This document shows, piece after piece, positions 4,046 through 59,542 of a DNA stretch of 64,000 nucleotides. A program made the position numbers and the translations under genes. The notes beneath the pieces are model-generated. The model made no database searches and was not told the DNA's origin. It saw only the letters and a list, made by a program, of their open reading frames with translations. This DNA comes from Chloranthus sessilifolius (Eukaryota; Streptophyta; Magnoliopsida; Chloranthales; Chloranthaceae). The stretch covers positions 69,087,604-69,151,603 of the forward strand of contig CM037587.1 in assembly GCA_021018995.1 (NCBI GenBank), written 5' to 3'. The first letter of the stretch is position 1, and every line of letters starts with the position of its first letter.

Positions 4046-5903
4046 TGTTGTCGCTCCAAGTGTGCCAAAAATGTGTGCAAAAAATTAAAGAATTAAAGAA
4101 TGCTAAATTATATGGATGTTAACTTATGAAAGGGATATCAGCACATTGGGGCTAACACTGGCCTGCAAGATCAGGGCCAATTGTAGCAAGTTTTAAAAGT
4201 AAGTATTTCAAGATCGTCCACAGAGAAGTTTGTCTAAAATGAGAGATAAACCTCCAGATCTGTGCTACCAGATCTGGCTCTATAATTATCTAAAATAAAG
4301 AATAGATAAAAGAGAGTGTTGGGTTTTGTCACGTTTAACTAAAAGCAAATAAAGAAAAGAACTAACTACGTGATCCAGATCCGAGTTGTGGAGGTGTTTA
4401 AAATAAGACAAATGCAGAAATAATAGCTTCATGTATTTTAGCCTTTGAATTTTAATGGAGAATCAGTAGTTCAACGAGGCAGATTCAATCTTCATCCGCT
4501 ACCAAGACAGATGTAAGAGAAATAAATCGAATTAAGGAATAGGTTTAGACTTATGGGCGTGATTTGTCACGGATCATCGACTAGTGGCCTATTCTTTATT
4601 TGAACATGAACATCATCGTAAAATCTTGCTTGAATTAGGTTACCAACGCTAATTCGCACGGGGATGATGAGTTAAGGCAAGTTGGATGCGGATGAGTGAA
4701 TCTAAAGAAGTCTAATGCACTAAGGTGAGCACTGAGAACCCTCGACATGACTCCAATGGAGAAGACACAAATTGAACCTTTTAAAATCCAACGTTTAGAG
4801 AGAGCCCTCGGACTTACATTCGAGCTTCTCAGAGAGCCCTCATTCTGATCTTGAATCCGAACTTGGAAGTACAAATCACTCATAATGGCTCTCAAAGGTA
4901 AAATACAAGAAGGGATTACAGGAATCGATGAGCTTCAATCGGAATGGGGAAACAGAGATGAAAACTCTAAAATCTGGATACCCAAATTGGGCAAATGGTT
5001 GATCTATTTATAGTTTTCCCTAAGCCCATTTCGAGATGTGTATCAACCAATCGTAATTGGATAGATCTGTATCAACCAATAGGAGTCGAGCACCGGGATC
5101 CGGATCATTACGCCAATCGAAATGCTTGATCCGGTTCACCAATCAGAAACAGAGGCATCAATTACATTATGTAATTCAAAAATCTGTTTGAGCTTCTAGA
5201 AGTTCCCGCCAAGTAATTTCATCTTTGGGTGTTCACATGGGGTGGAATATGCCTTTGGTTCGTGCTCGAATCTTCCTAATGTCCTTGGGTTTTAAAACGC
5301 ATTGGGGCGTGCAAAGTTTCTGAAATACCTTCGGACGAGCAAATCCCCGTAATGCCATTTCGCATAGTTTAAGGGCTTTTTCAAAGTAGTTTGGCTCGAA
5401 TCTCTTCGCAAAGCATTTTGGCTCCGAATCTCTTTTCGCAGCATTTTGGCTTCAGGAGATCTTTTTCGTAAGGACTTTGGCTTCAGGAGATCTTTTCGCA
5501 AAGGACTTCTCTTCTTTTCGCAAAGCATTTTGGCTTCAGGAGGTCTTTTCGCAAAGGACTTCTCTTCTTTTCGCAAAGTTCAAAGTTCTTTGCGAATAGT
5601 AGATGTTCTTTGCGAATTGAACTTTTAGCTTCCATTCTTCTTTGCGAATGGATCCTTCTTCTTCTTCAGGTCTTTTCTTGCTCTTTTAGGACCTTTTTAG
5701 CCATTGCTGAGGCTATTTCTTCACTCCCTCTTTGAGTTTGACATGCGTTGTCAGCTTTTTGATCATTTTAGGATGGTTTTCGGATTTGGACCTGTCTTTT
5801 TGGTTAGCTGCAATATGAACACTAAAGCACTTATTTAGTCCTCTCAAGGGTCTTTCAAGGCTCATGTTTAGGGGTAAAAAATGGTATTTTTCACTACTTA
5901 TCA
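4046..5903 (-). mobile_element. Athila-A-family solo LTR nested in the LARD LTR
   Basis: The insert starts TGTTGTCGC and ends ACTTATCA on the + strand, with perfect cctag target duplications at 4041-4045 and 5904-5908. The sister LTR at 11212 has a single cctag, giving an empty-site comparison. Read on the - strand it resembles the Athila-A LTRs at 39460 and 48367: shared stretches include the CTATAAATAG TATA region (about 4997-5013), the GGCGGGAACTTCTAGAAG segment and the U5 with GGACGATCTT. A TTCGCAAAG-type motif array lies at about 5395-5660. There is no primer site, internal region or second LTR, so it is a solo LTR left by LTR-LTR recombination. Confidence 0.9.
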
Positions 5904-15929: not shown

Positions 15930-17417
15930 ACGGCCCAGCCCGCGATTCAATCACTAATCTTAGAGCGAAAAGCATCCTCCCGAACATTCCACTCGGTCAA
16001 CCAATGACCATGCAAGCTCTTATACCTCTTCCGAGACACATCAGCAGCACCAAGGGTAACACTGAAAGATCCTTTTAGACGAAGGACCTCACTCTCCGCT
16101 ATCCCTGTTTTAACTTTCTCTTATGCTGAAAGCTCGTGTAGGACCCTCTTCTCCTCAGTCAACAACTCAATACGGTCCTAGAGTGCCGTCTCCTTCTTCT
16201 GCCAGGGGCCTCCCACACCAATACTCTTCAGTCGATCCAAATGATCAACAACAGGTTTCTCAGCCAATAGCCAACCCTCATACTCAAGGGAAGACTGAAC
16301 TTAATATCCCTGCTCCATATCACACATCAGCATTGACTGACACGTCTCCCAAAGGGTAGCAATCTTATCCACATACTCGGAGGACCCCCTAGAAAAGATC
16401 AAGTCACATAGAGGGGGTTTTATCTCGTAAGGCACTTACTTAGAGCAGAAGAACTGACGCAACACTCGAAATGGGAAATAGAAGGTGCTGCCAACCAATC
16501 CTAGAAGGGTGATGCCCTCATGGTCTCTAGAATGAACTATTGGGAAGGTCTAGTCCAACAAAGGAAGCCTCTATATCAGCTCAACGTCGGTCAACCAAAG
16601 CTTTAAAGCTGATAAATCGCCCTGCCAAAGCAAGTGACACCTACCCGAAAAGCATCGAGCCACCTCACCTCAAGCAATATAAAAGAGTGGCATGGGTCCC
16701 AAGATAGCGAGATGCTCACCTAACCAGACTTGAAGCAGCAAAGGACATCCCCTGAGGTTCTCCATCTTACCCAGAGCAAACGCATCAAGATATCGATACA
16801 GTTTAGTAAGGACCAAATGCATCATTGATCGGCCCTCTGCCAATTCGATCAAAACATTCAAAGAGCCAGAGAGAAGGTCTCTCCCCAGTCAAGAAAAGGA
16901 CTTCCGAGAAGAGACCAAGAGCAAAGGCTTTCACATTGAAGATGTTCCTAATTGGCAATTTTTGAAGACTTTCGTCACAGAAAAGTTTGAGGAATTTGAT
17001 CAAACACCTTATGGGCCCCCCAACGAGACTTTTCTCGTACTCAAATTTCTTCAAACCGAGGGTAAGGTAAACAGATTTGGAGTAGCCCGACTTTGGTGCG
17101 ACTCTTGCGAGGCCTCTGTGAAGCTTCAAGCCAGATAAATTGGATAGCTCCTCAAGGGTTGGAGTTAGCTCTCGCTTCCCAAAATGAAACACATGCACAT
17201 TTGTATCCCAAAATGAGGCCCCATGAAGTAGGTCCCACCATAGAGTAACATCAAGAAACAAGGGAAGACGTGATAGCCCAAGCCACTCGAATTCAACAAG
17301 CTCACTCTCGTTCAATCTCCCAAGCCAACTTTTAATAAAATTGGGCCCCAAGCCCAACAAAATGAGTAAATTAGTTCTAGGCCCTCCATGTAAGGGAGGG
17401 TGGGAAAGCGGGTCCAT
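15930..17417 (-). pseudogene. Antisense accessory ORF of Tat-1, PMD/DUF7745-like
   Basis: Read antisense to the element, the ORF starts at the ATG at 17417 (MDPLS...HGGPRT). It continues to about 16803, then shifts frame and remains recognisable to about 15930. The N-terminal domain has W-L-RLNESELVEFEW, VHVFHFGKRELTPTLEEL and LSGLKLHRGLARV, a pattern seen in plant mobile domain and DUF7745 proteins. Later text (DHEGITLLGL, YFPFRVLRQF, EGWLL) and a C-terminal coiled coil (RIELLTEEK...SEVLRLK) match the Tat-3 copy at 62451. Antisense accessory ORFs between pol and the 3' LTR are known in Tat elements; their function is not. Upstream in-frame codons to 17486 are probably leader. Confidence 0.65.
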
Positions 17418-17559
17418 AGACGTACAAAGGTATCTCAAGAATATAAAATTCAATTCATGTTGATGGACCCGCCCTTGGGGAAGCAAGGAGAAAAAGAATC
17501 ACTCAAGAAGGCCAAGTATAAAAGAAAAGAGAGGGAATCTGGATTGTCTCGGGCATATA

Positions 17560-17940
17560 AGGCTTTGAAAAATGACAAAAAAATCACACTAAATAATAGC
17601 TTTGAAAAACCCAAAAAAAATCACATAAAATGATAGCTTTGAAAAATCCAAAAAAAAAACAAAAAATAAAAAATCACATAAAATGATAGCTTTGAAATAC
17701 CAAAAATCCCATAAAATGATAGTTTTGAAAAACCAAAATAATAACTTTGAAAAACAAAAAAAATACATAAAATAATAAAGAAAATTCCAAAAATAATAAA
17801 GTGATAAAATCACATGGAATGATAACTTAAAATCCAAAAAAATCACATAAAATAATAACTCAAAATCTAAAAAAATCACATAGAATGATAAACACTAAAA
17901 AGGATAAATATTTCACATAAAATAATAAAAAAATATGCTT
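17560..17940. repeat. A-rich minisatellite upstream of the Tat-1 antisense ORF
   Basis: Repeated words aaatcacataaaatgatagctttgaaaaac occur about ten times with units of roughly 30-50 bp and decay toward 17935. The array sits directly 5' of the antisense ORF, as the tandem array at 62040-62400 does in Tat-3. The sequences themselves are unrelated. Confidence 0.75.
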
Positions 17941-27057: not shown

Positions 27058-30000
27058 TGTTGGGGATTTCTAGTGTACCAATTTATTGTGTAATGATAAA
27101 GACAAAATAAAATCAGAGTAAAACAGGGGATGGATTCAGCACAATAAAAATATCATAGACCTGCAAGATATATGGTCCTTTGTTGCAAGTTTTAATAAGT
27201 AAGAGTTTTTTCCAAAAGGAGTAGTGATCTAAACCTAGAAGGAGTATAGGAGACCTCCAGATCTGGCTACAGATCTGGCAATTCTATGAAAACAGAGAAA
27301 AGAAAGAGAGTTTTTCTGTGTCACTAGATCTAATTATTTTATAAAACTACTGGAGATTTTCTAAACTACTGGAGAAATATGAATAAAAAATGGTTATTTA
27401 ACTAAAGTGCATAAAAATAAATCCTAATCCTCCTTCAAATTAAGATCGTCAATCTTAGTCCTCAGCTATCGGATATTTATGAAAATAAATAGTACCGTTA
27501 CACCATATATCAAGTTTCCTAGCATTGGTCATCAATCAAGTCTAAGATCCTATCAATACAGATTTAATTTAATCAACAATCAACCAAAAATTTGGGTGTC
27601 AATCAAACTCTGGCAAACTGAAGATGGAAAAGTAGAAACTGTTACACTAATCTGCAAATTCTAACCTGAGTCGTCAACTCAAGTCAAAACTTGGAGATGT
27701 TTACAAAGCAAATAAAACCAGATCTTAATTATACAAAACTGAAATAAAACTAAACTAAAAGATGGAGGAAGATGGATGAAAAAATAAAGATCAAATGATG
27801 GGAAATAGACAGCTAGGGCCTGATTTTCATTGCAAAACGGACCAAGATCTAAGGCTATGCAGCCATCCTTGATTTGGCTAAAAGCACAAATGAAAGGTAT
27901 AAGAATCCGATCTAGACCGGTGATTTGGATTCATCTTATGGCTATGATCTATCCACTTCAATGGTCACAGATCATCCAATAGATTTCCTCCATCCCTGAT
28001 TTGGATTGATCTTATGGCTATGATTTGTCCACTTAAATGGTCACAGATCATCCAATAGATTTTCTCCATTCCAATGGCTTCGATCAGAATAAGATAATCA
28101 CTACAGATGCTGTGGATGCAAGGCCACAGGCACAGACACCCACAGACATATCAAACCCAAGGAAATTAGATGGTCATCAAGAGATCTACCAGTTAAGTGG
28201 GTGAGCTGATTAACAAACTCCTCTACACAAATCCGATCGAGAATTTAATGGGACCACCAGATCTTTAGATTTAACTAAGCTTTAAAATCAACAAATTATT
28301 GCTTCAAACAAAACAACTTACAATAAACTTGTTCCCAGATCTATAGTCTGTGCATCGATCCACATTTCTTCATGTCGAAATTACAATTACAAACCAGATC
28401 TGAGCTACTATCTAGATCTAATCCAACAGGTTGGATTAGAGATAGAAGGGGGAAGAGAAAAAGGAAAATAAAAACTTAAACTAAACCTAAATGAGCTAAG
28501 GAGAACTCAGGCTACTCTTTTGTTCCTACTTTCCTTGCTGAAGAAAAATAGCAGAAAGGAGTTCTATTTATACATTTGCATTGATCCTTGTGCCTTGGGT
28601 TTCAGCCAATCAGAGAGCAAAGATGGATCCCTCTTCTGTTGTGCTTCAGTTATATTCCCGCCAAAAATTAGCACATACCCATGTGTAGGGTTTCCTGTGC
28701 ATTGGAGTTCTAAATCTACCCTTGCTAACCACAAAATACTCAGCTACTCATCTTTATATTTGATATTTGCAAAATGGACCCAAGCTGCCCCTGTTGTCCA
28801 TTACTCTTTCCAGTTGCACACCTCAAAATAATTATTCTTGGCTGCCCCCAAAATACCCCCTGCTATAATTATTTCTAAAAGCAGCCCAATGTACTTCTGC
28901 TGTTTATCACCAAAGCAACCCCAAATGGACCCCATTTTATTAAACTGCTAATGTTAAGTCTCATGGCTGCAGCTTGAAAGAATAGGCTTGAAGCATTTCG
29001 ATAGGTGGAGCTGCAGCTAAATGAACCCTTCGATAGGTTCTATTGGGTGGTTGAAGCAAGGAGCATATATATATATAAACGTGTATGCAGCCGTACATAA
29101 GATGCCAAGTTTGAGGGGCTTTCTGAGAAATTGATGGTTGGATAGGATCTTGACTGCACATCGGTAGATTGGAGGAGGCTGGAGGTTGGGCATCTCTACG
29201 GATTGAGATATTTAAGTGGTCAAAGGGCTTTATGGTCTGATTGTGCAGCTGAAGTTTGCATGCAAGTTTGCTAGGAGGCTGCTGCTGCAGTGTATTGGAC
29301 CATTCGATAGGTTGAAGGTTGGGGAGCTCCACTTCGATAGGATCACTAGCAGTAGAACTCGATAGGTACAATGGTAAAGCTTGGGCAGTGCACTCGATAG
29401 GATTGTGGGCTGTAGTTCTGTAGTATTCGATAGGTGATGGAGCTGCAATTTGATAGGATGAAATGATGGTGCTGCAGCAAGGTGTCGATAGGTTCAAACT
29501 CACATGGTCGACAGGTTCAAGGGCTTCTATGCTGAACTGCTCGATAGGATTCTGAGGAGTTTAAATGCACAGGTTCAAATGCTCATCTGTTCGAGGGGTT
29601 GGCTGGTGCCACTCGATAGGATCACAACTGGAATCTTTGTTGCTTCAGCTGCTCCACAAGTCAATAGGTTGGAGCATGGAGTTTCACTTTTCGATAGGTG
29701 ATGCTCCATCTTGACAGAATTAACAGCAAGTTTGCATGAGTGCAGCTGCTGTTAGAGCTGTACCTCATGGCTGCATTAATGTATGCAAGGTTGAGGCTTG
29801 GGCTGCTCTGCCATGCACTTACTGTGGAGCTACTTGAGATGGAGAACCAAATGAGTGTGCACATCTCTCAAAACATCGCTGAAGTGATTGCTGACTTCCT
29901 TGGTTGCTCAAGTCCTCAATGTGCTAGCTTTTGTGGCACTTCTTCCGCTGCTATTCAAGTGGCCACTTGTGCATCCAATGATCTGCAAATCTGTAAGTCT

Positions 30001-31689: not shown

Positions 31690-32350
31690 CTTCGAGAGGT
31701 TCACGGACCCTCTCGACAGGTTCTTAGTATTATTTATGCTCCATTCAACAGGTTAGATTAGGCTTTCGACAGGTTTGATGACTTCTCGATAGGATCCGTT
31801 GACTGTTCGACAGGATTGACATCCATTCCTAGCTACTGTTCTAGCTCCATTAGTCCTCTCGACAGGTTATAATTCAACCTGTCAATTTGTTATATAGCTT
31901 TAGGTACATTTTGACAGGTTCAGGTCTACTTTTTCACAAGGTGGTTGCACTTCTCAACAAGTTGATTCAACCTTGCGCAAATGAATGCAGCTTCAGGTAA
32001 GTCCTCGATAGGTTGGCTTTGACTGCTCGCCAGGTTTAGGGGAACCTCTCGACATGTTCTGGAACCTCGCCAACTCCCCTGTATCTCCAGGTGACCTCTC
32101 AACAAGATGCACTAAACTAATCGATAGGTTCTGTGAACCTCTCGAACTCTTCACTTTTTCATCTCAGGACCTCTCGACAGGTTGGAATGCAGCTCCATAA
32201 CCTCTCGACAGGTTGCTTTCTTTAGATTTTACTCCTCAACAGGATGTGGGGACCTTTCGACAACTTCATATTTAAACACCCCAACCTCTCGACAGCTTGA
32301 CTTCTCTCACCAGAACCTCTCGAGAGGTTGAATTAACCTCTCGAGCTCTT
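31690..32350. promoter_or_regulatory. CTCGACAGGTT dyad array in the outer LTR
   Basis: About 20 copies of CTCGACAGGTT or variants occur, often extended to the dyad AACCTCTCGAGAGGTT, which is perfect near 32320-32335. Spacing is about 20-60 bp. The array sits upstream of the TATA-like site on the - strand. Confidence 0.65.
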
Positions 32351-39459: not shown

Positions 39460-41077
39460 TGTTGAGAACTAGAAAATACCATTTTCCACCTTTTAACCTG
39501 GGCCTTGATAGACCCTTGAGAGAACTAAATAAGGGTTTTAAGTGCTTGTGTTACTGCTAACAATAAAGACAGGCTTAACCATGAAAGCAGCCTAAAAGTG
39601 CCAAAAAGATGATAATCCATGTCGATCCAAAGGAAGAAAGAGAAGGGACAACCTCACTAGCTGTCAAAATGCCTGAACTGAAGAGGCAAAGACCTGGTCT
39701 CAACCCAGAAAAGAAATGTGGAGCAATTCAAACAGAAAAATGCACTACAGAGTACTTTTCGAAAAGAATCTGAACTTTTCGAAAAGAACCTGAACTCTGC
39801 GAAAAGAACTAAAAGCTCCAGGCTTAGTTTTCGAAGAGCACCTGAACTCTTTGAAAGGATGATTATCCTATTCGAAAAGAAGAGAACACTCATAATGTAA
39901 CTCGAACTTTGCGAAAGAGGTTCAGAGTCACGACTCGAAAAGTTCCCTAAACTATGTGAAATGGTATTCTGGAGATTCCTAGCTTCTGCAAGGGTAATTC
40001 AGTAATCTTTTGCATGCGTCCCAATGCAGTTAAAAACCTAGGGACATTCCAGAAGGTTCTAAGCACGAAGCGAAGGAATATTCCACCCCATGTGAGCACC
40101 CGAAGATGAAATCACTTGGCGGGAACTTCTAGAAGCTCTAACAGATTTTCAAATTGCATAACAGAATTGATGCTTATGTCGCCTGATTGGCTGAACCAGA
40201 TCGAGCAATTCTGATTGGCCAGAACAGATCTGGATCCTTGTGCTCGACTACCATTGGTTGATACAGATCTGAGCACTTCTAATTGGTCAATACGCATCTG
40301 AGCTAGACCTGGGAAAAACTATAAATAGATAAACCATTTGCCCAATTTGGGCATCCAGATTTTGAGTTTCATTCCTATTCCCCCATTTCTAAATCAGCTA
40401 GTTTGTCTGAAACCCCTGTAATAGCCTAACTTTTACTTGCAATTGAGAGCTGTGAGATACCTCTGTAATTCAAAAGAGAATTGTATTCAAGACTATAAAT
40501 CTGAGAGTTGTTTAAGCTGTGCTCTGTAATTGTAATGGTGAATTTGAAAAGGTTGTTGTAACCGTACATTCTCAATTGGATTCGTGTTAAGGGTTCCCTC
40601 TGATCTCCTTATTACACTAGACTCCTTTAGATTTACTAGTTTTCATGCAATTTCCCTTGATTCATTAACCCTGTGAGAATTAGTGTTTGTAACCTAATCT
40701 CTCATAGCATTTGTAGTGATATTTCTTGTTCTAAATTAAGGGTTTAGATTAAAGACTATTGGATGGTCTGTGGCCATTGAAGTGGACAGACCATAGCCAT
40801 AAGCCTAAATCTAATCCTTGAGTTAGATTTATTTCTCTTACATCTGTGCTTGTAGCCAGATCTGGAGGTTTATCTTGCATTTTAAACAAATTCCCTGTGG
40901 ACGATCTTTTACTCACTTACATTTAAAACTTGCTAGAATTGGCCCTGATCTTGCAGGCTAATTCACTTCTCTCTGTGCTGATATTTCTTTATTCTTTTTC
41001 CCAGATTCAGTATAACTTAGCATTTGTAAACCTAATTTTAAAACACAGATAAATCATGCACACTCAGAATACCAACA
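39460..41077 (+). repeat. Athila-A 5' LTR (1.62 kb)
   Basis: U3 contains the motif array (39750-39960). TATAAATAG is at 40320-40328. The U5 ends ATACCAACA at 41077, six bases before the primer site. It lacks about 245 bp present in the 3' LTR (49773-50010); the deletion junction is at ccagat/cagatctgg, a short repeat, near 40858. Confidence 0.92.
39750..39960 (+). promoter_or_regulatory. CTTTTCGAAAAG motif array in the Athila-A 5' LTR
   Basis: About nine units of roughly 20 bp follow the pattern aacctgaact-TTCGAAAAG, including two perfect CTTTTCGAAAAG palindromes and variants with TGCGAAAAG. The array lies 360-570 bp upstream of the TATA box. The 3' LTR copy is at 48660-48870. Confidence 0.75.
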
Positions 41078-46809: not shown

Positions 46810-47130
46810 GTTCTCTTTTCGTGAAGTTTAAATATGTGAAAAATTAATTCGCAAAGTAAAAATTGTCTTTTCGCAAAGTTCAATTTGCTTTTCGAAAAGG
46901 ATTTGGATTTGCAACGAAATGCTCGAAAGCAATGATTTGCTTTTCGAATAGTTGTTTCTGAAGCCATTTGCTTTTCGAAAAGTTGTTTCTGAAGCTATTA
47001 GCTTTTCGAATGGTACTGATGCCATTCTCTATTGTAAAAAGGACTATTTTGAACTTTTTGAAAACTTAAAAATTACTTTGCGAAAATAACTTTGAGCATA
47101 TTTAAACCCTTTCGAAGTAAGGGTTCATAT
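46810..47130 (+). promoter_or_regulatory. Second TTCGAAAAG array with promoter-like end, upstream of the env position (Athila-A)
   Basis: About ten motif sites lie between the pol stop and the env-position ATG: TTCGCAAAG (46851, 46871), CTTTTCGAAAAG (46888, 46971), CTTTTCGAATAG, CTTTTCGAATGG, CTTTGCGAAAAT and others. Part of it is a 35-bp tandem unit (ttgcttttcgaaaagttgtttctgaagc). It is the LTR motif, although this region is not LTR. A TATA-like catatttaaa (47098-47107) follows, then a CT-rich leader with an AAAACCCTAG element at 47307. Confidence 0.65.
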
Positions 47131-48366: not shown

Positions 48367-50228
48367 TGTTGAGAACTAGAAAATACCATTTTCTACCCTT
48401 TAACCTGGGCCTTGATAGACCCTTGAGAGAACTAAATAAGTGTTTTAAGTGCTTGTGTTACAGCTAACAATAAAGACAGGCTTAACCATGAAAGCAGCCT
48501 AAAAGTGCCAAAAAGATGATAATCCATGTCGATCCAAAGGAAGAAAGAGAAGGGACAACCTCACTAGCTGTCAAAATGCCTGAACTGAAGAGGCAAAGAC
48601 CTGGTCTTAACCCAGAAAAGAAATGTGGAGCAATTCGAATAGAAAAATGTACTACAGAGTGCTTTTCGAAAAGAATCTGAACTTTTCGAAAAGAACCTGA
48701 ACTCTGCGAAAAGAACTAAAAGCTCCAGGCTTAGTTTTCGAAGAGCACCTGAACTCTTCGAAAGGATGATTGACCTATTCAAAAAGAAGAGAACTCCTTG
48801 CGAATAGAACCTGAACTTTGCGAAAAGAGCTTCAGGAGTTACAGTACCTTGCGAAAAGTACCCTAAACTATGCGAAATGGTATTCTGGAGATTCCTAGCT
48901 TCTGCAAGGGTAATTCAATAATCTTTTGAACGTGTCCCAATGCAGTTAAAAACCTAGGGACATTCCAGAAGATTCTAAGCATGAAGCGAAGGCATATTCC
49001 ACCCCATGTGAGCACCCGAAGATGAAATCACTTGGCGGGAACTTCTAGAAGCTCTAACAAATTTTCAAATTGCATAACAGAATTGATGCTTATGTCGTCT
49101 GATTGGCTGAAGCAGATCGAGCAATTCTGATTGGCCAGAACAGACCTGGATCCTTGTGCTCGACTATCATTGGTTGATACAGATCTGAGCACTTCTAATT
49201 GGTCAATACGCTTCTGAGCTAGACCTGGGGAAAACTATAAATAGATGAACCATTTGCCCAATTTGGGCATCCAGATTTTGAGTTTCATTCCTATTCCCCC
49301 ATTTCCAAATCAGCTAGTTTGTCTGAAACCCCTGTAATAGCCTAACTTTTACTTGCAATTGAGAGCTGTGAGATACCTCTGTAATTCAAAAGAAAATTGT
49401 ATTCAAGACTACAAATCTGAGAGTTGTTTAAGCTGTGCTCTGTAATTGTAATGGTGAATTTGAAAAGGTTGCTGTAACCGTACATTCTCAATTGGATTCG
49501 TGTTAAGGGTTCCCTCTGATCTCCTTATTGCACTAGACTCCTTTAGATTTACTGTTTTTCATGCAATTTCCCTTGATTCATTAACCCTGTGGGAATTAGT
49601 GTTTGTAACCTAATCTCTCACAGCATTTGTAGTGATATTTCTTGTTCTAAATTAAAGGTTTAGATTAAAGACTATTGGATGGTCTATGGCCATTGAAGTG
49701 GACAGACCATAGCCATAAGCCTAAATCTAATCCTTGAGTTAGATTTATTTCTCTTACATCTGTGCTTATAGCCAGATGAAGATTGGATCATCTCTCATTT
49801 GCTCTGCAGTCATTCTCATTGTGTTTCAAGGACCAAATCAAAGTTAGATATTATTTCTTCATTTTTATAAGTTTACATCAAAATTCCCCCAACTCGGATC
49901 TGGATCATTTAGTATAACTTTTACTTTTATCATTTAGTTAACGTGACAAATTCAACCTCCCATCTTATGTGCTCTGTAGATAGGATAAGAGGCCAGATCT
50001 GGTAGCTCAGATCTGGAGGTTTATCTTGCATTTTAAACAAATTCCCTGTGGACGATCTTTTACTCACTTACATTTAAAACTTGCTACAATTGGCCCTGAT
50101 CTTGCAGGCTAATTCACTTCTCTCTGTTCTAATATTTCTTTATTCTTTTTCCCAGATTCAGTATAACTTAGCATTTGTAAACCTGTTTTCAAAACACAAA
50201 TAAATCATGCACACTCAGAATACCAACA
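48367..50228 (+). repeat. Athila-A 3' LTR (1.86 kb)
   Basis: Matches the 5' LTR with scattered transitions. TATAAATAG is at 49236-49244 and the motif array at 48660-48870. It retains about 245 bp (49773-50010) missing from the 5' LTR; the solo LTR at 4046-5903 also has this segment, so the 5' LTR lost it. A patch in the array (48785-48860) differs from the 5' LTR far more than the rest. Confidence 0.92.
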
Positions 50229-50410: not shown

Positions 50411-52530
50411 TGTTGGAGTGTTTGCCTTCCCACAAATGAGGGTCTAAATTCATTAATAAAATTAGGCAGAACACACTCACACAGACCTGTAAGTAATCAG
50501 GATTTGTTGTAGCAAGTTTTAAAAAGATGGTGAGTAAGGGAATGTCCACAGGGAGGTTGGTTTAAAAATATGATAAATCTCCAGATCTGTATGAGATCTG
50601 GCATCCTAACTAATGCTACGTTAGCTAAAAGACATGGGAGAGGTTTTAAATGGATTGTCACTTAAAATAAGCTAAAATTAAACATAGACTAGCTTGGATC
50701 GAGTTTGGGAACTTAGATCTTGTAGGGGAAAAGAGTAAAGAAAACAGAAAATGGAGAAGAGTAGCTTGGAGATTGGTCTTCACTGAAATCAGACTTAATT
50801 AATCATGCTACAGAGGTTCAGAGTACACATTTTTGTCAACTGGCTATAAGCAAAGCTGCAGGGTAGAAAGCTCCACTTCAAATCGCAGGATCCACCTGGT
50901 CTTAAGGCTATGATCTGTCCACTTTAATGGACACAGACCATCCTATAGACTTTATCAAATCCATGGATTTGTAGCAGACGAATCCAATTGGAGCCTAAGC
51001 CTGGACAAATCTTAAGGTTATGATCTGTCCACTTTAATGGTCACAGACCATCCTAGGGATCTCCTCCAAAGCTAAAGCATCAATTAGAATAATTAAAACA
51101 ACTACAGATGAAGCAATTCCTAGGTCACAGACTCAAGGTATCACAGGAGTATCAGATCCAGGGAGATCGGGTGGTATCCAAGAGGCCTACCAGTTAAGTG
51201 GGTGAGCTGATCTACAGACTCTACACAAATCTGATCGATCACCAAATGAAACCAAAGGAACTTTAGATCTAATTAAAGCATTACAAACAACATTTACATT
51301 GTAATAAAAAAACACTCTACAATGGAAATACTCTCAGATCTATAGTCTGTGCAGCTGGGAACCCATAATAGTAATCTTAACCTTACCCAATTACAGGTCT
51401 AACCCTCTCTCCTCGCTACTCCAGGGGAATTAGCCAACCATTGTTGGGTTAAAGGAGGGAAAATAGAATTGCTCTGCAAGCTCTAATCTCCAAAAAAATT
51501 TTCTCAGATCACAATCCCCCCCAATGGCAATTGGGGGTCTCTATATATAGCTTTCTTCTCTATTTTTCACACCAAAAATCCCTTCTATAAGGTCTTCAAA
51601 GTTTGTTAGAGTTATGTTAGAGCATGTGGGTCGGTTAGGATTTCCTAGGGCATCTTCTAAAACCGTCGTGCCGGTCACCAAGTACCTCGAGTTGCGGGCA
51701 GCAGGTCACCAAATCTCAGCGCGTGCATAGCTAAATTTTTGAGAAGTTTTACACGCAATTTTGATAGGTTCTGAAAGCTTTCGACGGGTTCAAATAGAGC
51801 TTTTTGGTCCTCTCCCTCGGTTCTCAGATCTCTTTGATAGGTTTCGATCGGATGAGTCTTCTCTTAGAGTTTCAGCATTCTTAGCCCTGGGTCTGGAGTA
51901 TTCGACAGGTTGGGGAAGCTTTTCGACAGGTTGGAACACCATTTCGTTAGGTTCAGCTCTACATTAAATTGTTTCGATAGGATTGCTTTCACTCTTATCG
52001 AAAGGCTCAGTCCCCTTTGATAGGTTCTATTCCAGCGTCTTCATCTCGATAGGTTCAGGAAACTTGCCTCAGGCAGGTTTTTGATAGGATGATTTCTTCC
52101 TTCCTTTCAGCTGCTCGATAGGTTCTTGGATCCTATCGAACTTCTCAATCCACATGAATCCATCCTTCTTTTGCCTTCAGATCCTATCGAAACTTCTTCA
52201 GCTGCATGAATTCTTCCATTCTTTACTTTCAGCTCCTATCGAAGTCTTCAGGTGACCAATCGATAGGATGTTTTCAGCCTGTTTTCACTTCCTTCACCTT
52301 GCCCTGCTGTAGCCACGCGCTCCAAGGGTCTACCCTCTGGTGTGCTATTGTTGGGTTTGTCATGTGCTGAGAGATGGCCCCTTTTTGGGCCTTCTTGAGT
52401 GGTTTTCTGCATTAGTGTCCTCTTTTATTGCTGTCTACAAAATGTACTCGACAAAGGCTTATTAGTGTACTCACAGGTCTATCAGTGGTCAGGTTAAAGG
52501 GTGAAAAGTGGCATTTTTTACTACTTAACA
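50411..52530 (-). repeat. Athila-E 3' LTR (2.1 kb)
   Basis: TGTTAAGTAG...CACTCCAACA on the - strand, with the polypurine tract at its right side. The TATA box is ctatatatag at 51541-51550 and the TCGATAGG array lies upstream of it (51750-52270). U5 includes the cagatctggag and ttgtggac-type blocks shared with Athila-A. Confidence 0.87.
51750..52270. promoter_or_regulatory. TCGATAGG motif array in the Athila-E LTR
   Basis: About 17 sites occur in both orientations (ttcgataggatt, ctcgataggttc; cctatcgaac, cctatcgaag). Both orientations suggest the dyad CCTATCGATAGG. The sites are upstream of the TATA box at 51541 on the - strand. The same word recurs upstream of the env-position ORF (57160-57490). 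Confidence 0.7.
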
Positions 52531-54237: not shown

Positions 54238-56819
54238 CTATTTACAGGCATCATTTGCCCAATCATAGAGGTCAGCCAGGTGTTCCAGCTCATCCTTAGA
54301 TAAAGGAGCTTTTCCTTTAGATTTAGCTTTTGGTTACGGCTTCTTTGTGGCCCCCTCAGACTGGGCAGCAGGTTGTTTTCCTTTGGGATCAACAGCAGCA
54401 ACGAAATTTGAATCTGAATTAGAAGGAAAAAGGGCAGTGGGGTCCAATCCGAGAGCCGCAATAGCCTTCCTTCTTTCCTCCTTTGATAGTAAGGTGAAAG
54501 AGGCATTAGGTTGGGTTGGGGGCTAGGTGGGAGGGGCGGCTTTAGACTGGGCAACAGGCTTCTTTCCTTTATTGACAAAGGCAGCAGAGGGAGCAGATCT
54601 TTTTGCAGTAACTTTCTTCTTGGGGGGAGCCCTTTTAGGTTTCAAAGGTGCAGGTTGAGTAGGGGAGAGTTCCTAGGCTAGGGGACGGTGCACATCCACA
54701 GGGGGGTGAAAGGAGGTTGAGTTGTAGAAGGGGGACAGGAGTGAGTGGAAGGAGGTGCGGTGGCGAGAGGGGTAGGTTGAAATGGCTGAGAGGTAAGGGA
54801 AGTAACCTTTTTCTCCAATATGTCAATTTATTTTGCGGCATAGAGTAGGTTCGCATTAGAGAGTTCCTTGGTGGCCTTGAGTATCTCCTGAGCATTGGCT
54901 AATTTTTTCTTGAGAAGCTCAGAATTCTTCTTCTCATATTTGGCAATGAGACTCTCAGCAGCTGCCAACTATTTTGCGAACTCATAGCGAGTCAGGATTT
55001 CAGACCACCCTTGAGAGATATCTCGGAGCTTAATTCTGTGCTCCAATTCTATGCGAGCAATCCTCTCCTCATAAGGGGCCGCCATGGAAGCGCAGAATTA
55101 AGCTCTCGGGACATCCCTGTGGATGTAAGGGTTGTCCCTCATGGCATACAGCAGGGTGAGGTATGGGGGAATGTACATGGTTTGTCTAAGGACAATGGGC
55201 AAGGACAGGGGTGTAGTGGATGAAGAGGAGGGGGTGGAAGGAACCAGATCCTCCAAGGGATTAGTTTGGGTGGAGGCATCGTGGAAAATAGGTGGGGAGG
55301 TGGTGAAAGGTAGAGGGGATTCAGCGACCGCGGAGGCCAGTAAATTTGGTGATGAGGGTAAAGTGACCGATGGTGAGGAAAGTATGGGGAGAGCTGGTGC
55401 AACTACTTCCTCAGGCTGGGCAGCCGCAGGGTGTGGTATAGGTATGGGTGAAGCAGGAGGGGATAAGTGAGGGGGTCGAGGGGTGGAAGAGGGTGGGGTA
55501 AGAGTGGATTGAATTGATTGGAGGCATGAGCTCATGAGGGTTTGGTTGTCGGTGTTGATGGTTAATTGAGATTGAATGGTTTGGAGGAGGGATAGAATTT
55601 GAGTGAGGGTGTCAGGCATGGTGGGGGTAGAAGGGGTAGGTGTTTGGACATGATGGAAGGGAGAAGAGGGTGCATGGTTAAAATGAGGAGGAGTGGGGCG
55701 TGGGGAGTCAGGAAGTGGAGTGTACTCACATCCTCCACAATTGAGGTCATGAGGGCCGTGAACTCAGAAGTGGTGAACAGGTCAACACCCTATGGATGCA
55801 GGGGGGTTTGTGATGGGGGAAAATTAGAAATTGTTTGGGTAATGGGTGGAGAAGAAATGGTAGAGGTAAGTTCGAAAAATGTGGGAGGTTCAAGGATGTC
55901 AAGTTGGAGAACCTGGGAGGTGGGTGAAGGTAAAATAGGTTTAGAGGGGGGTGGAGAGAGATCTGTTGGAAGAGGGACTGCTACAAATGGAAAATGCAAA
56001 AGTGGGTGGAAGTGTGGGTAATGGGATAGGTATGGTATGTGGAGGGGTGGATTAGGGTATCTCTGCAGGAATCTCTGTTGCCATGGTAGTGGGTACCTTC
56101 TCAGCGTCCTCCCTTCCAACTAGCTGACTCTTCTTAATCAAGGTGAGGCTGGTTGACCATTCCCGCTTCCCATACAATTTAATGGTCAGCTTCTCCATGG
56201 GCTCATTTTTCTTGATCACATACTTTCCAGTCTTGAGCAGACATGTGATGAGTCTGCAGAAAGGCAGACCTTCTCCCTTACCAAAAGCTTGTCTCTTCAG
56301 CACCTTGTCATTGATGTCCACCATTGTTTCAAAAATCAGCTTAGGTGCATTCACAAATTGCCCCTTTGAGCAGAAGTATAGGGCATCCACTAATGGGGCC
56401 CTCCTCTCTTGCAGATGGCCAGAGACATAGACATTTTTCCTCAAAATGGTATCAATGAGTCTTAGGGTAGGATGGAGGTCTCTTCTCATCAAGGATTCAC
56501 GAGAACCCACTATTCTGTTAGTAAGCTGTTTAGCCATTTCCTGAAATGTAGCCCCTGTGGGTGCTCCCTCAGCTCTGGTGGAGTCAAATTGATATGGGAC
56601 ACCTAAAGCCATCCCAATATCTAAGGGTTCTTCCACTACAGGCTCCTGAATCTCAACAGCTTTGACTTTCTTAGCTTTAGGATCCTTTTTGGGTGACATC
56701 TTAGTGAGCTTCCTCTTGACAGGTGGTTTGTCAGCTAGCTTCAACCTCGCGGAGGATTTGGGGGTGGAAGCAGTTGCTCTCTGGCATATGTTTGCTAGAG
56801 TTTCCTCCGGCTCATCCAT
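54238..56819 (-). pseudogene. Athila-E env-position ORF: nuclear-type protein, not an envelope
   Basis: Starts at ATG 56819 (MDEPEETLANICQRA). Residues 25-50 are strongly basic (KPPVKRKLTKMSPKK, KAKKVK). Residues 75-240 (GVPYQFDSTRAEGAP, LRKNVYVSGHLQERRAPLVDAL, KLIFETMVDI, GLPFCRLITCLLK) match the layout of the putative plant transposon protein domain (PF20167-like). After a TGA at 56052 the frame continues as a Pro/Ser/Thr-rich segment, a helix (TLTQILSLLQTIQSQLT), coiled coils (about 54990-54800) and a second basic cluster (KPKRAPPKKKVTAKRS). It ends DLYDWANDACK, TAG 54238. I see no signal peptide, transmembrane helix or furin-like site. Several stops and at least one frameshift make it a pseudogene. 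Function unknown. Confidence 0.7.
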
Positions 56820-57091
56820 TTTACTCTCGGAGATTAGTCACTCACCAACTTGAAGTAGAGCTTAAAGGTTAAAAATTAGAGAAACAACAGATTGATGGTG
56901 GGAAGGCAACTGACCTCGAAATGCCTAGGGTTTAACAAAAATCGCAATACACAGCTTCAATTTTCCCAATGTCAAGGGCAAAATGCTCCTCTGTGCAAGC
57001 TGAATGTACTAACAAGATGGCAGACTGAATAGCTGAAGGTTCTGTGAGGATTTAGTGGAGAGAGAGGGAGGCGAAAGAGAGGGGAAAAGAG

Positions 57092-57150
57092 CTAGGGTTT
57101 TGCCGACGGTATGGAATGAGGCACAAATGACGTATCGACAGATATATAAG
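57092..57150 (-). promoter_or_regulatory. Promoter-like block for the Athila-E env-position ORF
   Basis: On the - strand CTTATATATC (57141-57150) is a TATA box. About 45 bases downstream is AAACCCTAGC (57092-57100), a telo-box-like word common in plant 5' leaders, then a CT-rich leader to the ATG at 56819. A tacgtcat word lies at 57127-57134, just downstream of the TATA. There is no splice evidence. Confidence 0.55.
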
Positions 57151-57159
57151 GGGTGAAGT

Positions 57160-57490
57160 ACGATTCTAATAGGATGAACTGTATGGTTTCGATAGGTTCA
57201 TGCGTCCTGTCGAAAACATAGTAGACAAAACTTTAAAAGGGGATGATTCGATAGGATCCCGATAGGTGGAACTATCCTTTTGATAAGTTTAAACGGCAGC
57301 TGATTTATCATTTTGATAGGTTCCTGATTGGTATCTAGAACCTATCGAAATCTCCGTTTTGCCCTTTTTTAACCGATCGAAAAGTTAGTTTTACCTGTCG
57401 AGAAGTTCAGTGCCTATTGAAACCACCGAACAACTTGCCGAAATCACCAAGTGACCTAACGAAAGGTGAACTTGACCTGTCGAAAACTCC
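57160..57490. promoter_or_regulatory. Second TCGATAGG array, upstream of the env-position promoter
   Basis: About 12 sites: ttcgataggttc (57188), cctgtcgaaa (57212), ttcgataggatc (57248), cgataggtgg, ttttgataggttc, acctatcgaaatc (57341), cgatcgaaaag, acctgtcgag, cctgtcgaaaac (57476). They begin directly 5' of the TATA box and match the array of the same element's LTR. Confidence 0.65.
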
Positions 57491-57959: not shown

Positions 57960-59542
57960 TGTGCGACCGTGGATCCTCTCGAACCCGTCGCGGCGATGCG
58001 CTCGCCATAAAAATGAAAATGGTGGAGTCGCCACCCGGAGCTTTTGGTGACCCGGGAAACCTTCAAATCGATATTTTAAGCACCGAAGTACTAAATATGA
58101 CTCTGATTTACCGGCCTTTGTCAAAGGCTCTAGGGTAGGGGCTTCGGTTATCGATCGGGAAGGGTTTAGGCACCCGATCAACCTGCACGTAGCGGTCTCT
58201 ATCTATGGCCAAAATAAAAATAAAAAGGGCGGAGTTTCCCCTTGCCCGAAGGCAATACGGTCTTATCAAGCTTTGAGCCAAACCGAAATTTCGGCGGCGT
58301 AACGGCTTGAATCCTTGGAAGGAGGAGACACCAAGAAGGTAGAGGAAGAGAGGGGTGAGCCGGAGCTCACGGGCCCTTGTTGCACCGTGGAAGATCTTCG
58401 CTTTGGCGTGATGGTGTGAAAATGGGTTCTAATGCTAGGATTCAATAAAGTAGGGGGTGTAGAGTGAAGCTAGAGGCTAGACTTTAGCAAAAGGGAGTGA
58501 TCTAATGGTGGAAATGGGTTGAAAGGGATTAACTAAGCATGCTGGAATTCTGGAAAAATGTGTGCATTTTCTCTCACTAGGGTTCTCTCTTAAGCTCCAA
58601 ATCCTTAACCTCCAATTTTTTCCAACCCTTAAGGAAGAGGGAGGCCTCTCTATTTATAGAGAAGGGATGGGTTAGGGGCTTACTTAAGAGCTAATTGGTT
58701 TAGCAATTAGGTAATCCCCCATCTAAGATTTTTTGGGTTTTCAAGGTCCTAGGATTTTGGGAAACTGGTTTCAATGGCGGATGATGGGGTGAGACCATGG
58801 GTGACTTAAGGGTTGCCAATAAGCTCAAAGGGGGTGCAACCAATCTCAAGACACCCACCTCAACCAAGGGGATGGTCAAAGGGTCAAACTGGATGGAGGA
58901 AATTCGAGCTACTGATGACAGTTACTGTAGCTAAGTTGGGCGTATATATTATATACGCCCAGTTTAGGAACAATAATTTTCACCAAAATCAGGTGAGTTT
59001 TGAGCAGATGAAACCCGTGGTGGGTCCCACCTATACTGGGCGTATATATTATATACGCCCGGCCAAATTTTCCCCAAAATAGGCAGGCGTATATAATATA
59101 TACGCCTGACTAATCTGGGGCAAAAATGGCTGGGCGTATGTAATATCTACGCCTGAGTAAAAATCCTATGATTTTATGTGAAACGTAAAACGGCCATAAC
59201 TTTTGAATCGTAACTCCAAATTGGGTGATCTTTGGCTCGTTGGAAAGCTGAAGAAGTCCTCTTTCCAATGGTACATGGCTCATCCATGGTACTAGTCTAT
59301 GTGAAATTTTGTAGCTATCCTCCCATCAACTACCAGAAGGGATTAAGTTAGGTCTGGAAAGGGATTCTAGTGTGTAAGGGTGACTTCTAAGGATTGGGGG
59401 AATGGCTCTACAGGTCTTAGGGTGATTCCTAAAGGTCTGGGTAGGTTCCTAAGGGTTCAGGGGGGTGCCATCAGAAGCACAGGGGTACATCTCTCCCGAA
59501 GTACAGATTGATCGGGCCTTAGGCCAAATTTGGGTGTCTACA
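57960..59542 (-). repeat. Tat-3 3' LTR (1.58 kb)
   Basis: TGTAGACACCC...GGTCGCACA on the - strand, with the polypurine tract on its right. The TATA box (ctatttata on +) is at 58650-58658. It shares conserved blocks with the Tat-2 LTR (accgaaatttcggcggcgtaacg, ggcttcggttatcgatcggg), but its foldback words are different. Confidence 0.88.
58935..59155. promoter_or_regulatory. TGGGCGTATATA foldback array in the Tat-3 LTR
   Basis: Four foldbacks: 58937-58961 (perfect 12-nt arms TGGGCGTATATA around one base), 59037-59060, 59085-59107 (AGGCGTATATA arms) and 59131-59154 (decayed). They lie 280-500 bp upstream of the TATA box, the same position as the different foldbacks of the Tat-2 LTR. Confidence 0.8.

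What the first reader, a model, noticed from the sequence alone, without database searches (positions are those of the whole stretch)
57160..57490. Athila-E repeats the same design with a different motif (TCGATAGG)
Its LTR array (51750-52270) uses TCGATAGG in both orientations, and about 12 sites of this word stand directly 5' of the TATA box for the env-position ORF. So two distinct elements, with unrelated motif words, each match LTR and internal array to themselves. That within-element match and between-element difference is what a co-evolving element-specific recognition system would leave. An analogy is the VANC anti-silencing proteins of VANDAL elements, which bind element-specific short-motif clusters; no VANC homolog is visible here.
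Basis: partly seen in the sequence, partly recalled or inferred. Interest (0 to 1): 0.88.

Follow-up and report, generated by a model that had tools for sequence, protein, structure and literature searches.

The report
Matching motif arrays in plant retrotransposons
A plant jumping gene carries many copies of one short DNA word both in its main promoter and just in front of an extra gene of unknown function, and several other families in the same genome do the same with their own words, which suggests that each may encode a protein that recognises its own kind.

Summary
The arrays are real: TCGATAGG occurs 7 times exactly (18 with one mismatch allowed) in the 3' LTR array and 3 (11) before the TATA box of the env-position ORF; shuffles average 0.01-0.43. 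Corrections: the neighbour's word TTCGAAAAG shares a TTCGA core, and two further LTR-like stretches use TCGATAGG or close variants. In a sample across the genome, 15 of 18 relatives have a TCGATAGG array where the 3' LTR should be; a nineteenth, L042, has a different LTR word. Other families put their own, mostly palindromic, word in both places; over seven families the self-pairing beats all other 5,039 pairings, though short words cross-match between some. Motif bases are better conserved than spacers, clearly in the LTR. ORFs of Pfam PF20167 or relatives follow the arrays in Athila-type, chromovirus-like and Sirevirus elements. Bousios et al. 2010 published this layout for Sireviruses; nothing seen in nine literature searches describes it in gypsy elements or links it to PF20167. 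Best reading: the ORF product binds its own family's arrays as activator or anti-silencer. Binding is inferred; a host factor is the main rival.

The parts
51750..52270 (.). U3 array of element E, word TCGATAGG, both orientations
   Evidence: 7 exact, 18 with <=1 mismatch; shuffle mean 0.01 and 0.43
50900..52530 (-). 3' LTR of element E; start 52530 read from TGTTAAG after GGTTAGGGGGTG; its far end (about 50.9 kb or beyond) not established
51542..51549 (-). TATA-like box in the LTR, 3' of the array on the element's strand
   Evidence: sequence
57160..57490 (.). internal array of element E, same word, 5' of the env-position ORF
   Evidence: 3 exact, 11 with <=1 mismatch; shuffle mean 0.01 and 0.29
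57142..57148 (-). TATA-like box between internal array and ORF
   Evidence: sequence
56052..56837 (-). open frame of the env-position ORF (ATG at 56819), PF20167-like, 23.1 bits, below Pfam's cut-off of 45; the copy in the window is interrupted downstream
55098..55763 (-). second open segment of the same region, no Pfam match at E <= 0.1
39460..41077 (+). 5' LTR of the neighbouring element I; array 39755-39943 of TTCGAAAAG/TTCGCAAAG
46815..47130 (.). internal array of element I, 13 sites of TTCGAAAAG with <=1 mismatch
48367..50228 (+). 3' LTR of element I; array 48662-48855, same word
28998..29698 (.). array of TCGATAGG in another LTR-like stretch (about 27.9-30.7 kb, limits read by eye)
31691..32340 (.). 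array of CCTCTCGACAGG / CCTCTCGAGAGG in another LTR-like stretch (about 30.9-32.7 kb, limits read by eye)

Best explanation
Element E has two promoters controlled by one family-specific set of binding sites: one in the LTR (genomic RNA) and one inside the element (env-position ORF). The best candidate for the factor that reads the sites is the product of that ORF, a PF20167-like protein, probably as a dimer, since most families' words are palindromes. It would switch on or de-silence its own promoter and its family's LTRs, a positive feedback confined to its own kind. Shown by sequence: the arrays, their place before TATA-like boxes in E, the self-match within and difference between the sampled families, stronger conservation of motif bases, and the recurrence of PF20167 or related ORFs behind such arrays in three kinds of element. 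Inferred: that the arrays drive transcription, that the ORF product binds them, and that the outcome is activation or loss of silencing.
For: Both arrays far above chance. E relatives: 8 of 8 and 7 of 10 have 5-12 exact TCGATAGG at the expected 3' LTR distance; of the other 3, one piece has none, one has one, one is a nested element. The commonest flanking bases agree too: TT before and TT after the core in both places. Seven families: mean self-coverage 31.5% against 7.1% for other pairings, best of 5,040. Motif columns more conserved than spacers: LTR 0.880 vs 0.830, 16 of 16 references, median 0.7% of shifted masks as good; internal 0.881 vs 0.848, 19 of 19, median 12%. In the comparison with E as reference, CpGs inside the internal motifs are kept in 132 of 183 cases, elsewhere 76 of 190. 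PF20167 above cut-off in Sirevirus-type L039 (66.7 bits), L043 (53.3) and L044 (52.9); E protein matches L043 at 47% over 133 residues (hhalign 99.8%). Of 20 further PF20167 hits (of 150 listed) 15 have an 8-mer 5 or more times in the 1.2 kb upstream: 10 with the Sirevirus word, 4 G, 1 K. In print: nine ENV-containing Sireviruses all have linker copies of their LTR motif, four without ENV have none (PMC2829016, section 9); a sunflower Athila ORF with PF20167 similarity has a predicted nuclear signal (PMC11728184, passages).
Against: No binding, expression or methylation data. E itself falls below the PF20167 cut-off (23.1 of 45 bits). No structure could be predicted and the PDB sequence search gave no relative, so a DNA-binding fold is not shown. 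In the matrix test the own LTR is the best-covered for I, K, the chromovirus-like family and the first Sirevirus only; E's 6-base words cover I's LTR (42%) more than its own (28%), G's and the second Sirevirus's cover the chromovirus-like one more. L042: internal TCGATAGG, LTR TCGCGAGG/TCGCGAAG. Of six GTCGAT-family elements three match exactly, one (L057/L065) only in the half-site, two show no such LTR word. K family: 3 of 4. The chromovirus-like protein piece has no Pfam match. L044's second array precedes an ORF without PF20167. Four ENV-less Sireviruses still have LTR arrays, so the LTR array does not need the ORF in cis. E's word is only half a palindrome, and its internal array does not reach five exact copies.
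Confidence: 0.5

Rival explanations
1. The arrays are enhancers bound by host transcription factors. Each family recruited a different host factor, and because the ORF needs its own promoter the same enhancer type was kept in the LTR and in front of the ORF.
For: In E the arrays sit before TATA-like boxes in both places. ENV-less Sireviruses keep LTR arrays (PMC2829016), and L044 has an array before an ORF without PF20167. Bousios et al. found mainly stress-related factor sites when they compared the Sirevirus motifs with known plant sites.
Against: Needs many separate recruitments of dense palindromic arrays, in three kinds of element that share PF20167 or related ORFs; the words are many and change between relatives.
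Confidence: 0.3
2. The palindromes act through silencing or structure: hairpin transcripts, small-RNA hot spots or recombination products, without a dedicated binding protein.
For: Palindrome motifs in the LTRs of three maize Copia (Sirevirus) families are small-RNA mapping hot spots (PMC5311732, passages).
Against: E's word is only partly palindromic and lies in both orientations among diverged spacers; its place 5' of an ORF and TATA-like box, and motif conservation above spacers, point to a site that is read.
Confidence: 0.1
3. The words work at the RNA level, for example in packaging, export or reverse transcription, because both arrays can be present in genomic RNA.
For: The internal array and the U3 of the 3' LTR would lie in a full-length transcript; accessory proteins of retroviruses such as Rev act on RNA (analogy in PMC7264820, passages).
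Against: Words occur on both strands within one array, which suits double-stranded DNA better than an RNA signal.
Confidence: 0.05
4. The match is a by-product of repeat turnover: a simple repeat was copied between LTR and interior and has no function.
For: Arrays vary in copy number between copies.
Against: No long aligned segment joins the two E arrays; motif columns are more conserved than spacers in the LTR; the pattern recurs in seven families.
Confidence: 0.05

Closest known systems
Sirevirus repeated motif (RM) boxes, Bousios et al. 2010 (PMC2829016)
   Same: Many copies of an element-specific palindromic word in the upper half of the LTR before the TATA box, and again 5' of the env-position ORF; word the same within an element, different between elements.
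   Different: E lacks the Sirevirus PPT; its word lacks the CGG-CCG core. The paper calls the boxes Sirevirus-specific, having compared them with other Ty1/copia elements, and the term transposase does not occur in it.
VANC anti-silencing proteins of VANDAL DNA transposons (PMC5735166, PMC10398659)
   Same: TE-encoded factor with family-specific short-motif clusters in non-coding regions that differ between related families.
   Different: VANDALs are DNA transposons; VANC21 binding and VANC-induced demethylation are shown by experiment; [quoted passage not shown] E's ORF matches PF20167, not DUF1985.
Athila aORF with PF20167 similarity in sunflower (PMC11728184)
   Same: Env-position sense ORF of an Athila element with partial Transposase_32 similarity and predicted nuclear signal.
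   Different: No motif arrays or DNA target were described in the passages read.
Retand antisense TRP28 ORFs (PMC11963269)
   Same: Extra ORF between pol and 3' LTR with predicted DNA binding and a proposed regulatory role; tandem repeats nearby.
   Different: ORF is antisense, Pfam PF04195; a match between the repeats and an LTR word was not reported in the parts read.

Membership tests
Sirevirus RM-box system | Ty1/copia Sirevirus with AGGGGGAG PPT just before the 3' LTR | tested here: not met
   E has GGTTAGGGGGTG before TGTTAAG; of the 30 Sirevirus-type loci 25 show AGGGGGAG followed within 1-4 bases by TG
Sirevirus RM-box system | same word clustered in U3 5' of a TATA box and 5' of the env-position ORF | tested here: met
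Sirevirus RM-box system | palindromic word with CGG-CCG core | tested here: not met
   E word TTTCGATAGGTT, half-palindromic, no CGG-CCG; in the paper Tnd-1 is an exception
VANC / VANDAL anti-silencing | DUF1985-type VANC protein | tested here: not met
   E ORF gives only PF20167 in Pfam; none of the 11 window ORFs scanned (of 20 of 150 aa or more) matched DUF1985; DUF1985 (PF09331) occurs elsewhere in the genome. That VANC carries DUF1985 is recalled; PMC5735166 holds the term once, passage not shown
VANC / VANDAL anti-silencing | family-specific motif clusters in non-coding regions | tested here: met
VANC / VANDAL anti-silencing | protein binds motif and causes loss of methylation | not testable with these tools
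   no binding or methylation data held
PF20167 (Transposase_32) protein family | score above Pfam's cut-off of 45 bits | tested here: not met
   E 23.1, E-family L002 19.1, L042 13.8 bits; relatives L043 53.3, L044 52.9, L039 66.7
PF20167 (Transposase_32) protein family | homology to members above the cut-off | tested here: met
   E vs L043 47% over 133 aa; hhalign E-L043 99.8%, E-L044 95.9%
Athila lineage | reverse-transcriptase phylogeny | not tested

The most novel reading that the evidence does not exclude
PF20167-like proteins are a shared class of self-recognising DNA-binding regulators of plant LTR retrotransposons. The module (ORF plus its site array, with a matching array in the LTR) is found in copia Sireviruses, Athila-type gypsy and chromovirus-like gypsy elements, and in each family the protein and its half-site have changed together, so that each family activates or de-silences only itself, a VANC-like system for retrotransposons.
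Probability: 0.42. Interest if true: 0.87.

Novelty: new variant of a known kind. Interest (0 to 1): 0.72.

Why it matters
The role of the 'env-like' ORF of Athila elements and Sireviruses has long been open (recalled; PMC7264820 passages say its possible roles remain unclear). A cognate array before the ORF and in the LTR gives a concrete hypothesis, a transcriptional or anti-silencing factor, that one binding experiment can test. If right, the design is not confined to Sireviruses, and it would suggest how very large retrotransposon families can be controlled family by family (first-look candidates: 13,856 for PF20167, 39,870 for the E protein, 32,235 for the chromovirus-like protein; only about 150 were scored in each search).

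Tried and rejected
'Unrelated words': rejected for the two elements in the window, which share a TTCG core.

L094 as an LTR with a different word: rejected; it is the internal array and ORF of a nested element of the TCGCGAGG family.

L042 as an artefact: its 5' LTR was sought at the expected distance and not found, so it stays as a mismatch; recombination between relatives is possible but not shown.

LTR boundaries in the matrix test were chosen by eye, in part because repeated words were seen there. A check with fixed-distance pieces was therefore made (24 elements): the commonest upstream 7-mer was CCTATCG, alone or tied, in 15 of 18 E elements; 12 of those 15 have 6 or more copies (best of the tied words) in their own downstream piece, and the six pieces of other families have 0 or 1. 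Of the four G elements in that check one has its exact word downstream, three do not. The K element has 3 copies, but its word reaches 7 in one E piece, L094, which is the nested K element. The second Sirevirus (L054/L070) has 3 copies, and is weak in the matrix test: 13 of 200 shuffles do as well.

L001-L008 were found by an exact 19-base bait inside the internal array, which favours copies conserved there; the second set came by protein similarity and gives the same answer.

Relatives in other species: two searches of the large protein collection gave nothing at E <= 0.001. PDB sequence search: nothing for the E profile, one hit at E 1.7 for the Sirevirus profile. A search of the genome for DUF1985 gave 150 scored matches, all over the cut-off, but no loci could be cut out, so no profile comparison with VANC was made. 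L043's, L058's and L063's own LTRs were not recognised in the pieces fetched; L068 holds an array of another word, TTGATCGATCAA.

Full report
WHAT IS THERE. The window lies in a genome of 2.17 Gb, a plant's by its elements (G000:C4:69087604-69151603). Element E is on the minus strand: internal array 57160-57490, TATA-like box 57142-57148, ORF from ATG 56819 leftwards, and a 3' LTR that starts at 52530 with an array at 51750-52270 and a TATA-like box at 51542-51549. Its gag-pol part is not in the window; other sequence begins near 57.9 kb. Both arrays hold TCGATAGG far above dinucleotide shuffles: 3 exact and 11 with one mismatch allowed inside, 7 and 18 in the LTR. The plus-strand neighbour (element I, LTRs 39460-41077 and 48367-50228) has its own word, TTCGAAAAG/TTCGCAAAG, in both LTRs and before its env-position region, with 11-13 own-word sites per array and 0-1 E-word sites. 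The two words share TTCG, so 'unrelated' is too strong. Two more LTR-like stretches (about 27.9-30.7 and 30.9-32.7 kb) carry TCGATAGG and CCTCTCGACAGG arrays.

THE E FAMILY. A 19-base bait from the internal array has 142 exact copies in the genome (76 + 66). For the eight copies fetched, the piece at the distance of the 3' LTR holds 5-12 exact TCGATAGG in 8 of 8. Ten more, chosen among protein matches of 73-77% identity, give 7 of 10 with 6-11 copies; of the other three, one piece has none, one has one, and one is a nested element of another family. The commonest flanking bases agree as well: TT before and TT after the core in both places. L042, a relative at about 66-70% protein identity, has TCGATAGG inside but TCGCGAGG/TCGCGAAG in its LTR: a clear mismatch.

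OTHER FAMILIES. Searching the genome for PF20167 (13,856 first-look candidates, 150 scored) brought up, among the best 30, a Sirevirus-type element: 29 of 30 loci have CGGACGTC-type sites before the ORF, 27 of 30 have at least one in the downstream part that the locus reaches, and 25 of 30 show an AGGGGGAG PPT followed by TG. Twenty further hits of the 150, chosen because their match ends differ from the commonest, were examined upstream only: 15 of 20 have an 8-mer five or more times, 10 of them with the same Sirevirus word. As background, 18 of 105 overlapping 1.2-kb windows of the 64-kb window reach five; 13 of these 18 are arrays of the TTCG-type words described here, and E's own internal array is not among them because only 3 of its sites are exact. 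Words found, inside / LTR: K family CCTCGCGAGG / CTCGCG-type, 3 of 4 elements; G family GTCGATNNATCGAC, exact in 3 of 6 (L044, L061, L108), same half-site with another centre in one (L057), not found in two; a chromovirus-like family TCGANNNTCGA, 3 of 3, where the second array lies 3' of the ORF in what is presumed to be the LTR (lineage read by eye from a chromodomain-like end of pol, not tested); a second Sirevirus GGTTRACC, 1 of 1 but weak.

TESTS. With one representative per family (E, I, K, G, chromovirus-like, two Sireviruses), 6-base words repeated in the internal array cover on average 31.5% of the own LTR array and 7.1% of others, and no other of the 5,040 pairings does as well. Row by row, however, the own LTR is the best-covered for 4 of 7 only: E's words cover 42% of I's LTR array and 28% of E's own, G's cover 33% of the chromovirus-like array and 26% of its own, and the second Sirevirus's 30% and 18%. 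These cross-matches come from short shared cores such as TCGA; with 8- and 9-base words E and I separate cleanly. Neighbouring specificities may thus overlap. Motif columns are more conserved than spacers among E copies, with conservation measured between copies other than the one defining the motif: LTR 0.880 against 0.830 (16 of 16 references, median 0.7% of shifted masks as good), internal 0.881 against 0.848 (19 of 19, but median 12% of shifts as good, so weaker). In the comparison with E as reference, CpGs in internal motifs are kept in 132 of 183 cases and elsewhere in 76 of 190; that comparison is biased towards intact motifs because the reference defines them. The copies are related, so none of this counts independent events.

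THE PROTEIN. E's ORF scores 23.1 bits against PF20167, below the cut-off of 45; its relative L043 (47% over 133 residues) scores 53.3, L044 52.9 and the Sirevirus-type L039 66.7. Profile comparison links E with L043 (99.8%), L044 (95.9%) and the chromovirus-like protein (89.1%); the Sirevirus proteins are not linked by it (best 28%), but share the Pfam model and show weak BLASTP matches to L043 (about 22%, E about 1e-4 in a small set). The chromovirus-like piece has no Pfam match of its own. No structure was available to test for a DNA-binding fold.

MECHANISM. The simplest reading is two promoters under one set of sites: LTR for genomic RNA, internal for the ORF. Most words are palindromes, as for a dimer. 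Because the ORF behind the array belongs to one protein family, or to relatives of it, in three kinds of element, its product is the best candidate reader. A host factor remains possible, since any ORF with its own promoter needs an enhancer, and since LTR arrays occur in Sireviruses without the ORF (PMC2829016). I put the shared cis-regulatory part at about 0.9 and the ORF product as reader at about 0.5.

KNOWN WORK. Bousios et al. 2010 (PMC2829016; abstract, section 9 and passages read) described palindromic boxes in the LTRs of 13 Sireviruses and, in the nine with an ENV ORF, also upstream of that ORF, and called them Sirevirus-specific after comparison with other Ty1/copia elements. A sunflower paper reports PF20167 similarity in an Athila ORF (PMC11728184, passages), and a later one raises the VANC comparison and asks about Athila ORFs (PMC12844716, passages). 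VANC binding and target evolution: PMC5735166 and PMC10398659 (passages). Retand TRP28: PMC11963269 (abstract, part 1 of section 11, section 12). Small-RNA hot spots at Sirevirus palindromes: PMC5311732 (passages). Extra ORFs reviewed: PMC7264820 (passages). Nine searches of the open library showed, in listings and the passages opened, no paper describing such arrays in Athila or chromovirus elements or linking them to PF20167. Searches listed only 20 of 161, 71 and 31 papers, and subscription papers are mostly outside that library.

VERDICT. Real, family-specific and repeated in the sampled families across the genome. It is a gypsy-type variant of a published Sirevirus design, with a plausible protein candidate that one binding experiment can test.

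Noticed in passing
window 58939-59133: Four copies (two alike, two variants) of a long palindrome of the form GGGCGTATATATTATATACGCCC within about 200 bases, right of E; looks like yet another LTR-type array.
   Followed up: partly
window 17579-17916: Repeated units with TGTGATTT / CATTTTATG directly 5' of the minus-strand open frame 16803-17498 (weak DUF7745, below cut-off).
   Followed up: partly
window 5405-5642: Array of TTCGCAAAG (8 copies, 5 plus and 3 minus) in another LTR-like stretch of the window, on the same TTCG theme.
   Followed up: no
L044 1736-1955 (ORF strand): A second array with both GTCGATTAATCGA and GTCGATGCATCGAC words before a small ORF (2202-2594) without PF20167; the first array has only the TTAA centre in this locus.
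   Followed up: partly
L041 3374-3819 (ORF strand) and L068 37-363: Dense arrays of TTGATCGATCAA, a further word, in elements whose ORF was not identified.
   Followed up: no
L040 2-1873: One open frame of 624 aa holds a Pol_BBD match followed by PF20167, an unusual joint that may be a nested or fused element.
   Followed up: no
L066 1932-2549 (minus strand): A second ORF 3' of the first in the L058 element also resembles the PF20167-like proteins of L044 and L043.
   Followed up: no
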